Positions 42,664 to 48,487 of a stretch of DNA of 48,558 nucleotides are shown in pieces. Origin of the DNA: an uncultured Geobacteraceae bacterium (lineage in GTDB: Bacteria > Desulfobacterota > Desulfuromonadia > Geobacterales > CAIOGM01); assembly GCA_903902345.1 (NCBI GenBank), contig CAIUUR010000333.1:1-48558 (forward strand), in the 5' to 3' direction. Position numbers and translations under genes: made by a program. How positions within the stretch are numbered: position 1 is the stretch's first letter; the number at the start of each line of letters is the position of its first letter. Below the pieces are notes generated by a model. The model was not told where the DNA came from, ran no database searches, and saw nothing but the letters and a program-made list of their open reading frames with translations.

Positions 42664-42993
42664 ATGGCAAGCGAAAAAGTTCTCACCATTACCGACGACA
42701 CCTTTGACGCGGATGTCATCAACTCCGGCAAGCCGGTTCTCGTGGACTTCTGGGCCACCTGGTGTGCTCCCTGCAAGGCCATTGCCCCGGTGCTGGATGC
42801 CATTGCCGAAGAGTATGACGGACAGATTACCGTCGGCAAGGTCAACGTGGACGACAGCCCCGCAACCCCGGGCAAGTATGGTGTTCGCGGCATCCCCACC
42901 ATCATCCTCTTCAAGGATGGAGTCATCGTAGACCAGGTGGTTGGCGCGGTACCCAAGTCGCAACTGGAAGCTCTCGTCAAGAAAGCGCTCTAG
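42664..42993 (+). CDS. trxA: Thioredoxin
   Basis: A 109-residue cytoplasmic thioredoxin. The active site is FWATWCAPCKAIAP, i.e. CAPC rather than the usual CGPC, and the cis-Pro is in RGIPTIILF. AAGGAGAG precedes the ATG. Confidence 0.94.
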   Translation: MASEKVLTITDDTFDADVINSGKPVLVDFWATWCAPCKAIAPVLDAIAEEYDGQITVGKVNVDDSPATPGKYGVRGIPTIILFKDGVIVDQVVGAVPKSQLEALVKKAL

Positions 42994-43011
42994 ACCTCAA
43001 GGAGCGTCTTC

Positions 43012-43518
43012 ATGCACCATCGCCGGCTTCGCCTGGCAGGAACTCTGCTGGTTTCTTTCCTGTTGCTCCCGGCTCTGGCGACGGGGCTTCAGAGAGGGCA
43101 ACAGGCGCCGCCGCTGCAGGTGACCTCCATCTCCGGGCAGCGGATTACCAACGCAAATTATGCCGGTCAGCTGCTTCTTCTGGAGTTTTTCGCCACCTGG
43201 TGTGACCCCTGCCGGGAATCTATTCCCGCTATTTTACGCTTGAAAAAAAAGTACGGGAAGCAGGGTTTTCAGGTTCTCGGACTCAGTATTGATGAGTCCG
43301 GGGAGCGAGTCGTGAAGGCGTTCGTTTCGGAAAAGAAGATCTCCTATCCGGTAGCCCTGGCAAACGTCGCTCTGCAGGAAGCCTACGGTGTCCGTTCCGT
43401 GCCGACGATTTTCCTTATCAACCGGAAAGGGGTGGTCGTGGAAAAGTTTATGGGGATTTCAGAAGAGATCGAGCAGGCGCTGGAAAGCGCAGTCAAAGCG
43501 GGACTTGTCGGCAAATAG
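43012..43518 (+). CDS. TlpA/ResA-like exported thioredoxin
   Basis: A 168-residue protein with an N-terminal signal sequence (LAGTLLVSFLLLPALATG) and a TlpA-like thioredoxin fold. The active site is FFATWCDPCRES (CDPC), with VRSVPTIFLINRKG as cis-Pro region. Such proteins reduce or oxidise cysteines in the periplasm, often for cytochrome c maturation. It starts 18 nt after trxA; a terminator follows. Confidence 0.88.
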   Translation: MHHRRLRLAGTLLVSFLLLPALATGLQRGQQAPPLQVTSISGQRITNANYAGQLLLLEFFATWCDPCRESIPAILRLKKKYGKQGFQVLGLSIDESGERVVKAFVSEKKISYPVALANVALQEAYGVRSVPTIFLINRKGVVVEKFMGISEEIEQALESAVKAGLVGK

Positions 43519-43666: not shown

Positions 43667-43693
43667 TAAAGAGTTTCCCTTTCCAGCCGATAA
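43667..43693 (+). promoter_or_regulatory. Sigma-28 (FliA) promoter
   Basis: TAAAGAGT (43667-43674), an 11-bp spacer and GCCGATAA (43686-43693). The known consensus is TAAAGTTT-N11-GCCGATAA, so the -10 is perfect, the spacer exact and the -35 differs at two end positions. It sits about 55 bp before the first gene of the four-gene operon. Confidence 0.75.
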
Positions 43694-43747
43694 TAGTACT
43701 AAATGACCAGAGCTATGTTTGGGCGACAACGAATAAGGAGACGCGCG

Positions 43748-44026
43748 ATGAAGAGATTGTTATCAGTTTTTGTTCTTGCATATTCGGTGTCCGGATGTGC
43801 AACAGCTACGCTTGTGGAGAATGGGTCTCATCGGCAGACGGTTTCCCCTTGTGTGAATGACACCCTTTGCGTGCGTGACACCTATAGCGTTGTCTGGGAT
43901 ACCGGGACGGGATGTCGCAATTACTGTCAGGATTATCCCGTATCCTATCGGGCAAAACAAACAGAATACATGCTGGTTCCGGAACCGACTAAAAACTGCA
44001 ATGGCGATTGCGGAGGTGTGAAATGA
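43748..44026 (+). CDS. Small cysteine-rich lipoprotein
   Basis: A 92-residue lipoprotein: the signal peptide ends in a lipobox (YSVSGC, Cys17). The mature part has six cysteines in three pairs (35/41, 56/60, 84/88), suggesting disulfide links in the periplasm or outer membrane. AAGGAG is 7 nt before the ATG. No family is recognised. It overlaps the next gene by ATGA. First gene of the sigma-28-type operon. Confidence 0.75.
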   Translation: MKRLLSVFVLAYSVSGCATATLVENGSHRQTVSPCVNDTLCVRDTYSVVWDTGTGCRNYCQDYPVSYRAKQTEYMLVPEPTKNCNGDCGGVK

Positions 44027-44748
44027 TCCGTCACAGGATTCAGCGATTTACTCTTGGTTTGGCGACTCTGGCCGCGGTGGGTGGCGTAACCTCTCCTTTG
44101 TCGGCTGCTGCCAATGAAGTGGATCGGCTCGAAGCTTACCAAAGGTATATGGTCGAGGAGCCTCTCGGCATTCAACGGAGTCAAACCCCGGTTGGCAGGT
44201 TCAACTCGGAGGTGATTTTTTTAGCTGACCAGATTGAAAGAAACGCCGATCGTAAAAGTCTTGACAATACGTTTGTGGTAACCAGTATTACCAACTTGAA
44301 TAACCTCTCCGAGACGACAAGCTTCGGTAGGCTCCTTTCCGAAAATCTGATACATGAGCTGCAGGTTCGCAAGTGGAAGGTTTTCGAGGTCCGGCTTACC
44401 AAGGATATCATCGTAAATAATACCGGTGAGTTTTCGTTGAGCAGGGATATCCAGAAAATTCGTGATGTTTATAAAATAGGCGGAATAGTCGCGGGGACAT
44501 ACTCCATCGCCGAGGGTAATATAATCATAAACGTGAGAGTTGTGGATATAAACAGCGGTATTATTGCCTCATCCGGGCAGATTCGGATGCCGGTGGACTG
44601 GTTTACGGAATCGCTGCTCACTGCCAATGAAGAGAGGCAGAAGGTGATGAAAATCGTAGGAGACTCTCCTTCCCGGGGGAGGGCAAAAGGGGCGGGTTCG
44701 GAACTGGAATCATCGAAATGGATCAAGATAGAAGATATAACGAGATGA
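44023..44748 (+). CDS. FlgO-like exported protein
   Basis: A 241-residue protein with an N-terminal signal peptide (LGLATLAAVGGVTSPLSAAA). It has a FlgO-type domain (about 60-205): FVVTSITNLNNLSETTSFG, SENLIHELQVRKWKVFEVRL, GIVAGTYSIAEGNIIINVRV and VDINSGIIASSG. FlgO family proteins are needed for outer-membrane stability and motility in Vibrio. GGAGGT precedes the ATG. Coupled by ATGA on both sides. Confidence 0.85.
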   Translation: MIRHRIQRFTLGLATLAAVGGVTSPLSAAANEVDRLEAYQRYMVEEPLGIQRSQTPVGRFNSEVIFLADQIERNADRKSLDNTFVVTSITNLNNLSETTSFGRLLSENLIHELQVRKWKVFEVRLTKDIIVNNTGEFSLSRDIQKIRDVYKIGGIVAGTYSIAEGNIIINVRVVDINSGIIASSGQIRMPVDWFTESLLTANEERQKVMKIVGDSPSRGRAKGAGSELESSKWIKIEDITR

Positions 44749-45377
44749 ACTACCTCAAGGGAGTGCTCCTCCTGCTTCTCTGTTTGATGGCTGGTTGTGG
44801 CCATCAGCCCCGAACGTATCCTGCGTCATCCGGTTCGGCCTGCAGTAGCCAGGAAATGCTGAAGGCCACCGATCTGAAGAGTCTTTTCAAAGAGGTTGCC
44901 GTTGATATCTGTGCCGACAACTTCATCGGTTGTCAGCCAGGAGCTGCCGGCGGTGGACATACGACAGATCTTTGCGCGGAGAAAGAAGGAGCGAGGCCGA
45001 CGACTGTCCTGGTGACGGATTTTGTTGATCTCAACTCGTTCATCCCAAAGCAGACAGGCCTTATCATGGGCGAATTGATGCGCGGTGCTCTGAGCAGCGT
45101 TTGCCATTACAAGATTGTTCAAGCCGAGTTCGCCGCCTATTTCAAACTGTCGGAAAACGGGCTGGTTTCCTTGACCCGTCAATCCAGTGAAATAAAAAAC
45201 GACGAGTACCAACAGGACGAAGCGGTGGTTGGGACGTATAACTATCTTTCCGGTAACAAATTGTTGATTTTTGTTAAAAAAATAAATACCGGGACCAGCA
45301 GGATTTCCCGCATGGTAACGAAGGAACTGGATTATACCTGTTCCGACAATGTGGTTGTCAGTTATACCGTGAAGTAA
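44745..45377 (+). CDS. Second FlgO-like lipoprotein
   Basis: A 210-residue lipoprotein (lipobox LMAGC, Cys18). A FlgO-like fold is read from RPTTVLVTDFVDLNSFIP, TGLIMGELMRGALSS, VVGTYNYLSGNKLLIFVKKI. A Cys-rich segment (VDICADNFIGC...LCAEKE, near 55-85) and C-terminal TCSD add likely disulfides. It is divergent from the gene upstream, suggesting two non-redundant subunits. Coupled to the upstream gene by ATGA. Confidence 0.75.
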   Translation: MNYLKGVLLLLLCLMAGCGHQPRTYPASSGSACSSQEMLKATDLKSLFKEVAVDICADNFIGCQPGAAGGGHTTDLCAEKEGARPTTVLVTDFVDLNSFIPKQTGLIMGELMRGALSSVCHYKIVQAEFAAYFKLSENGLVSLTRQSSEIKNDEYQQDEAVVGTYNYLSGNKLLIFVKKINTGTSRISRMVTKELDYTCSDNVVVSYTVK

Positions 45378-45454
45378 TCTGAAAATTTTCAACTCAAATA
45401 CCACCGGGTGAAGGCCCGATTCCGTCACCCTCTCGACTGTTGAGGAGTCAGATC

Positions 45455-46381
45455 ATGTCAGATGCCAACGAGGACGAAAACGGTGTACTGCAAGATGGCA
45501 AAGGATCTCCTCCGGCCAGAAAATGGAAGATCAAACCAACCAAGGCGCAACTGTATATGATATCAGCCGGGACTCTTATCGTGATAGCTGTTTCCGTTAT
45601 TCTGTATAACATGCCGGCCAAGAAGGAGCCGGTTGGGCATAGGAGCCAGCACAAGAGCGTGGAAGGTGGCCAGCAGGAGCCGTATAAAAAGGAACTGCAC
45701 AAGATAATGACTGCGGCTCGCCAGAGTGCGGTAAAACCGCCCAAGGCGGAGCATGATGGTCACTTCGGGAACTCAACCTCTGCAAAAATGGGTCATGTGC
45801 CCAAGCCTTACGTCGACTCTGCTGCCGAGATGAAGCCTTTCTCCCCGCTGGACTCGATTGCCATGAAAAAAAGAAGAGTACTCTCTCCCTATTTACTTAA
45901 GAAATTGAACCCCAGACCTCTCGCCAGGGAGAAGCATCTGACTGCGCCCTTGAACGTAGCCATGCCGGTGCCGCAAAAACCGCTTGGTTCTCATTCCCCG
46001 GAGATGTCGAACAGCGAGACTTTCAGCGGAGTCCAGAAACGGACGGCGGAGAATATTAAACTCTTTATGTCAAAGGGGTGGGCGCCCTACTATAGCCATG
46101 GCAGGGATCAGCTGTTGTATCGGGCTCCTGATGACGGGGGGAGTGAGTCTCGGAAAATGATCAATACCGCCTGGTTTCTGGGGGACTCAAACATCGTCCT
46201 CTTCGCCAATGCGCTCAATTGCCCGGAAAAAAGCATAGACACCTTTGCCTATATGGAGTTGGATGCCCAGACGCTGAAAACGACGAAGAGCGGGGCGCGA
46301 GACAGTGCGGAAAAAGGGAACCAGCTGAAGGATATTCAGGAGCCCAGCGATCTGGCTCTTCACGACAAGGTTTGCAGATAG
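45455..46381 (+). CDS. Uncharacterised bitopic protein with periplasmic linker
   Basis: A 308-residue protein: a charged cytoplasmic N-terminus (1-31), one membrane helix (about 32-51, MISAGTLIVIAVSVILY), then a long Lys/His/Pro-rich linker to about 185, and a C-terminal domain (FMSKGWAPYYSHGRDQLLYR; NTAWFLGDSNIVLFANALNC). The ATG at 45455 has GAGGAG upstream. No family is recognised. The topology, a single anchor with a long extended linker, fits a protein that reaches across the periplasm to the lipoproteins encoded just before it. Last gene of the operon. Confidence 0.65.
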   Translation: MSDANEDENGVLQDGKGSPPARKWKIKPTKAQLYMISAGTLIVIAVSVILYNMPAKKEPVGHRSQHKSVEGGQQEPYKKELHKIMTAARQSAVKPPKAEHDGHFGNSTSAKMGHVPKPYVDSAAEMKPFSPLDSIAMKKRRVLSPYLLKKLNPRPLAREKHLTAPLNVAMPVPQKPLGSHSPEMSNSETFSGVQKRTAENIKLFMSKGWAPYYSHGRDQLLYRAPDDGGSESRKMINTAWFLGDSNIVLFANALNCPEKSIDTFAYMELDAQTLKTTKSGARDSAEKGNQLKDIQEPSDLALHDKVCR

Positions 46382-46577: not shown

Positions 46578-46943
46578 GTGAAAAACCCGTTTATCGAACG
46601 CGATATCCCTACCCCGTACCTCACGCCCGCAATTGCCCCTGCCGACTGGGAGTCGCACCGAGAGGTTTGTGAAGAGGTTTTGTTCACTGCCGGGAAAATC
46701 ATCGTCCGAGGCAATACCCACACTCGCAGTCCAAAGAATCACGCCGACAACCTCCTTTATCACAAGCCCAATCATCCTGTCGCCGTAATCCAAGCTAAGG
46801 TCGACAACCACACCAATAGCGACGGCATGCACAAGGCGCTCATCCCTGCCGATATGTTCAACACTCCCTTTAGCTATAGTTCCAAGGGCGACGGCTCCAT
46901 GGAGCACAACTCCTGTCATCCTCCCAAGATGAAATTCCGATGA
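46578..46943 (+). pseudogene. HsdR (type I restriction) N-terminal remnant
   Basis: A 121-residue open frame resembling the first part of a type I restriction endonuclease subunit: ERDIPTPYLTPAIAPADWES, GKIIVRGNTHTRSPKNHADN, HPVAVIQAKVDNHTNSDGMH, PFSYSSKGDGSMEHN. Normal HsdR proteins are about 750-1000 residues and continue with a helicase; here the frame ends after the nuclease-like N-part. There is no ribosome binding site. It is interpreted as a truncated, non-functional remnant. Confidence 0.7.
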
Positions 46944-47335
46944 ATTTGACAGATTTTCACGCTACGTACTACGCCCATGAGCTGACAAAGCGCTGCGCAT
47001 CCGACAGTGTTGAGAAACTCGCCTCGGTCCTGGCCGATGCCCAGGTAGACCTGAACCCGCACCAGGTAGAGGCTGCACTTTTTGCGTTTCGCAATCCATT
47101 TTCCAGAGGGGCTATCCTGGCCGATGAAGTCGGTTTGGGTAAGACCATCGAGGCCGGTCTCTTACTTGCTCAAAAGTGGGCAGAGCGCAAGCGCCGCCTG
47201 CTCGTTATCGTGCCAGCCAACCTGCGCAAGCAGTGGAGTCAGGAGATGGCCGACAAATTCTTTCTCCCGTCAGTCTTCCTTGAAAACAAGAGTTTCAACG
47301 AAATTATCAGCATTACTAAGGCTCGTAGAAATTAA
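46940..47335 (+). pseudogene. SNF2/DEAD-type helicase N-terminal remnant
   Basis: A 131-residue open frame with a Walker A motif in ILADEVGLGKTIEAGLLLAQ and a following VIVPANLRKQWSQEM (motif Ia region), typical of SNF2-like defence helicases of 900-1000 residues. Similarity stops near ENKSFNEI (about 47305), where the sequence changes character. It overlaps the HsdR remnant by ATGA. Truncated, so probably inactive. Confidence 0.75.
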
Positions 47336-47608
47336 GTTGCGGAAACAAGAGCAATCGTCTTTAGTTATATCCATTGCAGCTTCATCTATTTCTCCGGAAC
47401 TCGATTCTACAGATTCAGATAAATGGGTCAGAGGCTGGAAAACGAATATTTTAAGACTTGCTGCTCGTGAAATTGGTGCCTGCATCTCTCTGGCATTTTC
47501 TGATGATGCAGTATCTTTAGTTGAGGAGGCGGAAGCAAACGGGTTTAAAGAACGGTCATTTGTGTCAACTGTTACAGACCGCCTCAAGAGCAGTAAAGTC
47601 CCAATTGA
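47306..47608 (+). other. Unassigned sequence between two remnants
   Basis: An AT-richer segment. One plus frame is open through it (KWVRGWKTNILRLAAREIG and LVEEAEANGFKERSF), but there is no start with a ribosome binding site and no family is recognised. It may be a fragment of a fourth gene or an insertion scar. An in-frame TGA at 47606 closes the next remnant upstream. Confidence 0.4.
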
Positions 47609-48487
47609 ACGGACGAGGACCAGTATCGGCAACGCCTCGCTTCTCTCAAGTCCGATCATCCCTGGCTGACTCTGCCCGATACGGAATTTCTGAAGAAAAT
47701 CGGCGGGTGGCGACAGGAACGAACGGGCAATCGCCATGGTGTGACCTTGGCTGGGTTGCTCATGTTCGGCAGGGAAGACGCCCTCCGCGACGCTGAAGCC
47801 CTGCCGGGATATTTCGTTGATTACCGCGAAAAACTCGATTCTTTCGTCCGCTGGACCGACCGGGTTTGCCCCGACGGGACCTGGGAACCGAATCTTTTCC
47901 AATTCTATCAAAGGGTCTGGCCGAAGCTTGCAGCCGGTCTGCCGCAGCCGTTTCGTCTGGAAGGCGCTGAACGGAGAGACGAAACCCCTGCTCATGAAGC
48001 ACTTCGCGAGGCATTCATCAATGCCCTCATCCATGCGGACTTTCATGGCGTCGGAGGGATAGTCATCGAGCGTTATCCGGACCGCTTTACCCTGGAAAAT
48101 CCAGGTTTCCTGCTGATATCTCTTGAGCAGTATCATCGCGGCGGGGTCAGTGAATGCCGCAATAAGGCGTTACAAAAGATGTTTGCCCTGATAGGTCGTG
48201 GGGAGCAGGCCGGATCAGGGGCCGACAAGATCAGGACCGGATGGCGCCACCATCACTGGCGAGCGCCCAAACTGGATTGTTACGATCAGCCTAGCCGGGT
48301 TCAATTGGTGTTGCCCATGGTAAGCCTCATCCCTGAAGCTACCCTGTCGGCGCTCAAGGAACTTTTTGGCGTGGATTTTATCGAACATCACGTAACCCCT
48401 TCGGAATTGCAGGCATTGGCCACTGCCTCCCTGGAAGGCGGTCGTTGTCAAGGAAGTTGTCGCATTTCCTATGCAGCCTTGTTTTGA
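47609..48487 (+). pseudogene. AlbA_2/RecG-like ATP-binding protein, truncated
   Basis: From 47609 one frame encodes about 290 residues of an AlbA_2-type (RecG-like, divergent) ATP-binding regulator: HPWLTLPDTEFLKKIGGWR, GVTLAGLLMFGREDALRDA, FINALIHADFHG, FTLENPGFLLISLEQYHRGG, RGEQAGSGADKIRTGW. The N-terminal AlbA_2 part is missing (TGA directly upstream), and the C-terminus departs from the family after HVTPSELQALATASLEG and ends at a stop soon after. Probably a relic; a shorter ORF from GTG 47741 is possible but lacks a ribosome binding site. Confidence 0.7.

What the first reader, a model, noticed from the sequence alone, without database searches (positions are those of the whole stretch)
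43667..46381. Sigma-28-driven four-gene envelope operon with two FlgO-like proteins and two undescribed partners
TAAAGAGT-N11-GCCGATAA before the first gene is a near-consensus FliA promoter, and the first three genes are coupled by ATGA overlaps. Contents: a Cys-rich lipoprotein, a FlgO-like protein, a divergent FlgO-like lipoprotein, and a bitopic protein with a long Lys/His/Pro-rich periplasmic linker. FlgO proteins belong to the H-ring/outer-membrane support of polar flagella in Vibrio. Finding two of them with a cysteine-rich lipoprotein and a trans-periplasmic protein under a flagellar sigma factor suggests a motility-linked outer-envelope structure not described as such. The promoter and gene order are seen; the function is inferred.
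Basis: partly seen in the sequence, partly recalled or inferred. Interest (0 to 1): 0.78.

Follow-up and report, generated by a model that had tools for sequence, protein, structure and literature searches.

The report
Flagellar outer-membrane ring gene cassette
A small set of genes, probably switched on late in flagellum building, encodes two related ring-type proteins and a cysteine-rich lipoprotein that travel together in flagellated bacteria of several phyla; they probably form a disk under the outer membrane that supports the flagellum, and the lipoprotein family has not, as far as I could find, been described.

Summary
At 43667-43693 lies TAAAGAGT-N11-GCCGATAA, one of only three such sites in the 4.9 Mb assembly; another precedes cheW-cheA. 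Genes 1-2-3 overlap by ATGA; gene 4 follows after 77 nt. Gene 2 (FlgO1) and gene 3 (FlgO2) both pass Pfam's FlgO cut-off. The real unit is three genes: lipoprotein-FlgO1-FlgO2. By record titles it recurs in Geobacter/Desulfuromonadales relatives, Nitrospirae, Campylobacterota, Aquificaceae and Betaproteobacteria, in unrelated surroundings. FlgO1 and FlgO2 are two fully separated ancient paralogues. The lipoprotein shares a motif D[FY]PV.YR. 36 of 38 genomes tested that hold FlgO1 also encode FlgH. A sigma-28-like site stands out before about a third of the cassettes. Gene 4 occurs only in this genus (4 of 4); its C-terminal domain most resembles Haemophilus protein E. FlgO+FlgO' is already reported from Arcobacter, whose motor has concentric outer-membrane rings and no FlgP; models of Vibrio's FlgT and FlgP find nothing in this genome. 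Best reading: an Arcobacter-like, FlgP-free outer-membrane basal disk, with the small lipoprotein as a third, probably anchoring, part. New are the lipoprotein family and the spread; function is inferred, not shown.

The parts
43667..43693 (+). sigma-28 (FliA)-type promoter TAAAGAGT-N11-GCCGATAA
   Evidence: conserved island in genus relatives while flanks diverge
43735..43740 (+). ribosome-binding site AAGGAG of gene 1
   Evidence: sequence; conserved in relatives
43748..44026 (+). gene 1 (G1): 92-aa Cys-rich lipoprotein, motif DYPVSYR; first member of the conserved cassette
44023..44748 (+). gene 2 (FlgO1): FlgO-domain protein with a signal peptide; lipobox Cys lost in this genome
44745..45377 (+). 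gene 3 (FlgO2/FlgO'): divergent FlgO-domain lipoprotein with conserved cysteines
45442..45447 (+). ribosome-binding site GAGGAG of gene 4
   Evidence: sequence
45455..46381 (+). gene 4 (G4): bitopic protein, genus-specific, long basic/Pro-rich linker
46037..46378 (+). C-terminal periplasmic domain of G4, protein E-like fold (predicted)

Best explanation
The locus encodes an outer-membrane-associated flagellar basal disk of the FlgO type. FlgO1 and its ancient paralogue FlgO2 form the rings of the disk around the L/P rings. FlgO2 and the small lipoprotein G1 are held in the inner leaflet of the outer membrane by their lipids, so G1 serves as a ring partner or anchor, which lets FlgO1 itself do without a lipid in many lineages, including this one. 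Expression under sigma-28 adds the disk late, after the hook-basal body is finished, to stabilise the filament's exit through the outer membrane or to brace the stators. G4 is a genus-level addition: an inner-membrane anchor, a long linker across the periplasm and a protein E-like head that could touch the disk or the outer membrane. Shown here: sequence, homology, gene order, promoter conservation, co-occurrence with flagella. Inferred: ring assembly, the anchoring role of G1, the role of G4, the timing.
For: FlgO1 matches PF17680 at 3e-34 and PDB 'FlgO domain-containing' chains deposited in 58 copies per assembly (9yfg, 9yh6, 9yh7, 9yds; E 2e-16). FlgO2 matches PF17680 at 8e-7 and FlgO1 by profile (96.5%). 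FlgO2 follows FlgO1 in the 20 loci read from order relatives, with G1 just upstream in 14 of the 20 and mostly unrelated flanks. Same order in loci titled Nitrospirae, Campylobacteraceae, Aquificaceae, Burkholderiales, Rhodocyclales. FlgO1 and FlgO2 split with support 1.0; distances of G1, FlgO1 and FlgO2 correlate, rho 0.64-0.74. FlgH in 36/38 FlgO1-bearing genomes against about half in a Nitrospirota sample, where 7 of 8 FlgO1 genomes are FlgH+. Sigma-28-like sites of at least 12/16 before 13/35 G1-bearing cassettes against 62/4826 windows, and before cheW-cheA in this genome. A complete FliA is present. FlgO1 without lipobox only where G1 is present (16 of 44 against 0 of 16, P 0.003). Precedent: Arcobacter FlgO/FlgO' operon, 5-6 concentric outer-membrane rings, no FlgP (PMC9321776, PMC5758724).
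Against: No expression or mutant data. About two thirds of the cassettes show no recognisable sigma-28 site. Two FlgO1-bearing genomes lack a FlgH match: G003 (same genus, 92% complete, also no FliA over the cut-off) and G065. Within the order the FlgO1-flagella link is not significant because nearly all relatives are flagellated (P 0.14). No flagellar gene was seen beside the cassette in the window. G1 could not be folded reliably (pLDDT 53). Related sequences are not independent counts, and the lipobox calls were partly corrected by eye.
Confidence: 0.7

Rival explanations
1. It is an ordinary Vibrio-type H-ring locus, with FlgT and FlgP encoded elsewhere in the genome.
For: FlgO1 is a clear FlgO homologue and Vibrio FlgO is the outer part of the H-ring (PMC6504787, PMC7990780).
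Against: No FlgT_N match in 26 of 30 and no LPP20 match in 28 of 30 FlgO1-bearing genomes, none in this one; Vibrio flgO, flgP and flgT are sigma-54 class III genes (PMC6504787), not sigma-28; Vibrio flgO is next to flgP, not to a second FlgO (PMC3948606). No Vibrio genome was available as positive control for the two models.
Confidence: 0.12
2. The FlgO-like proteins are general envelope or stress lipoproteins that merely fall in the sigma-28 regulon and are not part of the motor.
For: FlgO-domain proteins also occur in other contexts in the order, without a sigma-28 site (e.g. L002, L004, L026); no physical link to the motor is shown.
Against: 36/38 co-occurrence with FlgH across phyla, conserved promoter island, multi-copy PDB homologue, Arcobacter precedent.
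Confidence: 0.15
3. Gene 4 is an integral part of the structure, a trans-periplasmic strut between the inner membrane and the disk.
For: Always directly behind FlgO2 in all four genomes of the genus; bitopic with a long linker; protein E-like head; a Nitrospirae locus (L133) has an Adhesin_E-domain gene right after FlgO2.
Against: Absent outside the genus, own spacing and ribosome site, linker poorly conserved; sequence profiles do not link the G4 head to the L133 protein.
Confidence: 0.35

Closest known systems
Arcobacter FlgO/FlgO' operon and concentric outer-membrane disk (PMC9321776, PMC5758724)
   Same: Two adjacent, distantly similar FlgO-family genes; no FlgP; outer-membrane-associated rings expected
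   Different: Here an extra Cys-rich lipoprotein gene comes first and a sigma-28-type promoter precedes it; found well beyond Arcobacter. PMC5758724 reported no such accessory proteins in delta-proteobacteria by homology search. Whether Arcobacter itself has the lipoprotein gene could not be checked.
Vibrio H-ring (FlgO, FlgP, FlgT)
   Same: FlgO1 is a FlgO homologue; likely position at the outer membrane around the L-ring
   Different: No FlgT or LPP20/FlgP match in this genome; second FlgO instead of FlgP; sigma-28 rather than sigma-54 control
Helicobacter FapH ring (PMC11756786)
   Same: Small operon with a lipoprotein that forms an outer-membrane-associated motor ring
   Different: In an operon with flgP, not FlgO; I did not compare the sequences
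Haemophilus surface-adhesin protein E / Adhesin_E (PF16747)
   Same: Predicted fold of the gene 4 C-terminal domain (VIA Z 9.5 to 3zh7)
   Different: No sequence-level match; bitopic rather than an outer-membrane lipoprotein

Membership tests
FlgO family (PF17680) | score over Pfam's curated cut-off | tested here: met
   gene 2 118 bits, gene 3 29.5 bits, cut-off 22.6
FlgO family (PF17680) | outer-membrane lipoprotein | tested here: inconclusive
   gene 3 has a lipobox; gene 2 has lost the Cys present in its sister species
FlgO/FlgO' tandem of Arcobacter type | two adjacent FlgO paralogues | tested here: met
FlgO/FlgO' tandem of Arcobacter type | concentric rings at the outer membrane around the motor | not testable with these tools
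   needs cryo-electron tomography
FlgO/FlgO' tandem of Arcobacter type | no FlgP (LPP20) in the genome | tested here: met
   no LPP20 match in this genome; no Vibrio or Campylobacter positive control
Vibrio H-ring | FlgT present | tested here: not met
   no FlgT_N match in this genome; no Vibrio positive control
Vibrio H-ring | FlgP (LPP20) present | tested here: not met
   no LPP20 match in this genome; no Vibrio positive control
sigma-28 regulon | near-consensus promoter upstream and a FliA gene in the genome | tested here: met
sigma-28 regulon | transcription lost in a fliA mutant | not testable with these tools
   needs a wet experiment
Adhesin_E (PF16747) for the gene 4 domain | sequence match to the family | tested here: not met
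   no Pfam match up to E 10
Adhesin_E (PF16747) for the gene 4 domain | shared fold | tested here: inconclusive
   protein E ranks first, Z 9.5, but the runner-up has 9.0 and the model is only pLDDT 72

The most novel reading that the evidence does not exclude
The D[FY]PV.YR lipoprotein family is a dedicated third component of a FlgP-free, FlgO/FlgO' outer-membrane basal disk that is spread over several phyla; it anchors or seeds the rings, taking over the lipid anchor from FlgO1.
Probability: 0.45. Interest if true: 0.72.

Novelty: new variant of a known kind. Interest (0 to 1): 0.6.

Why it matters
Outer-membrane disks of flagellar motors are seen by tomography in several bacteria, but their parts are known for only a few. 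This cassette gives a compact, co-inherited candidate part list (two FlgO paralogues and an uncharacterised lipoprotein) for motors of Geobacter relatives and of several other phyla, with cultured members (Geomonas, Geotalea, Geobacter sp. OR-1, Tepidiphilus, Macromonas) in which it can be tested directly by gene deletion and cryo-tomography.

Tried and rejected
Fold of gene 1: AlphaFold with 28 sequences gave pLDDT 53, pTM 0.21, so no fold search was made; its profile finds nothing credible in PDB. Gene 4 domain: Foldseek against PDB found nothing at E <= 0.001, and a profile comparison with the Nitrospirae Adhesin_E protein was negative; only the structural realignment pointed to protein E. 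FlgO2 against PDB by profile: no match. Plasmid collection: no FlgO1 relative. The third sigma-28 site without an obvious gene (L033, C562) was scanned for short ORFs and Rfam families: nothing clear. Within-order association of the cassette with FlgH tested: not significant, so the cross-phylum figures carry that argument. An automatic test of FlgO1 lipidation against G1 gave P 0.23 because several true lipoboxes were missed; after reading those sequences by eye it became 0.003, so it should be treated as suggestive only.

Full report
What is there. The window is contig C333 of a 4.9 Mb draft assembly. At 43667-43693 stands TAAAGAGT-N11-GCCGATAA. The pattern TAAAG-N14-GCCGATAA occurs three times in the whole assembly and never in the reversed control; one of the other two lies about 65 bases before a cheW-cheA pair, as expected of a FliA promoter. 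A full-length FliA homologue is present. Behind the site come AAGGAG and four genes. Genes 1, 2 and 3 are chained by ATGA overlaps; gene 4 follows after 77 bases with its own ribosome site and no convincing terminator in between.

What the proteins are. Gene 1 is a 92-residue lipoprotein with six cysteines after the lipidated one. Gene 2 (FlgO1) is a FlgO-domain protein, E 3e-34; gene 3 (FlgO2) is a second, divergent one, E 8e-7, also over Pfam's cut-off, and the two profiles find each other at 96.5%. Genes 1 and 4 match no Pfam or NCBIfam family. FlgO1 matches solved 'FlgO domain-containing' chains present in 58 copies per assembly, which suggests large rings.

Conservation. In 20 loci of order relatives with mostly unrelated flanks, FlgO2 follows FlgO1, and gene 1 homologues stand directly upstream in 14. 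A scan of named genomes gave 59 loci: FlgO2 directly follows FlgO1 in most, and a gene 1-like lipoprotein with the motif D[FY]PV.YR or a profile match precedes it in about 43 of them, including loci titled Nitrospirae, Aquificaceae, Campylobacteraceae, Burkholderiales, Rhodocyclales and Tepidiphilus. The whole set of FlgO1 separates from the whole set of FlgO2 with support 1.0; within a locus they are 20% identical, across loci FlgO1 is 49% and FlgO2 44% identical on average; distances of the three proteins correlate (rho 0.64-0.74). So this is an old three-gene unit, inherited together. Gene 4 is found only in the four genomes of the genus.

Link to flagella. 36 of 38 genomes taken from these loci encode FlgH. 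In a Nitrospirota sample about 74 of 148 genomes have a strong FlgH match, and 7 of the 8 with FlgO1 do (one-sided P 0.03). Inside the order the link cannot be tested because nearly all members are flagellated. The exceptions are two drafts; the same-genus G003 lacks both FlgH and FliA, which lie about 3 kb apart in the relatives, so one missing stretch could explain both (inference).

Promoter. Before 13 of 35 cassettes that have gene 1, the 250 bases upstream hold a site with at least 12 of 16 consensus bases, against 62 of 4826 windows of the same loci. Close relatives are counted separately, so the P value is only a guide. In the genus, TAAA and CCGA remain while the neighbourhood changes; sister L084 keeps only a degenerate -10. 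Many cassettes show no such site, so sigma-28 control is a feature of this and several other lineages, not of the cassette everywhere.

Not the Vibrio H-ring. FlgT_N is absent from 26 of 30 and LPP20 (FlgP) from 28 of 30 FlgO1-bearing genomes, both from this one (no Vibrio control was available). In Vibrio these genes are sigma-54 class III genes (PMC6504787). The closer precedent is Arcobacter, with an operon of FlgO and a paralogue FlgO', and an A. butzleri disk of 5-6 concentric rings tight on the outer membrane without FlgP or FlgQ (PMC9321776; PMC5758724). The latter paper found no such accessory proteins in delta-proteobacteria by homology; the present loci in Geobacter relatives fill that gap.

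Gene 1 as anchor. FlgO1 is a lipoprotein in all 16 loci without a recognised gene 1, but lacks the lipobox in about 16 of 44 with it (partly by eye). In this very genome the lipobox Cys is Gly, while the sister species keeps it. This suggests, and does not prove, that gene 1 can supply the membrane anchor.

Gene 4. The C-terminal domain (46037-46378) was modelled at pLDDT 72, pTM 0.63. Foldseek found nothing significant; realignment ranks H. influenzae protein E first, Z 9.5, rmsd 3.2 over 103 residues, with TdeM at 9.0 next. An Adhesin_E gene also stands behind FlgO2 in the Nitrospirae locus L133. Both are leads only.

Judgement. Most likely the genes build an Arcobacter-like FlgO/FlgO' basal disk under the outer membrane, with the small lipoprotein as a constant, undescribed partner (about 0.7 for the disk, about 0.45 for the anchor role).

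Noticed in passing
46578-48487: Downstream of the operon lie broken-looking pieces: an SNF2-related helicase fragment (46940-47335) and a RecG-type C-terminal/HATPase_c_4 protein (47741-48487), with short or shifted frames near the contig end.
   Followed up: partly
42664-43518: A thioredoxin and a secreted TlpA-like redoxin stand directly before the operon, next to two Cys-rich envelope proteins; the redoxin neighbour is shared by G003 but was not grouped in the other two genus members.
   Followed up: partly
G000:C562:7399-7425 (L033:1501-1527): A perfect TAAAGTTT-N11-GCCGATAA site in the same assembly without a clear gene behind it; a candidate promoter for a small RNA or short protein.
   Followed up: partly
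L002, L004, L026: Another FlgO-domain protein in order relatives, behind a conserved lipoprotein (..CASRVPVAVNHPLT.. or similar), without a sigma-28-like site: a second, different FlgO context.
   Followed up: no
L116:2967-4256: A TPR-OmpA (peptidoglycan-binding type) protein directly downstream of FlgO2 in a Nitrospirae cassette.
   Followed up: no
G054:C1 near 1294000 and 1534000 (L068, L069): One genome carries two complete copies of the lipoprotein-FlgO1-FlgO2 cassette 240 kb apart.
   Followed up: no
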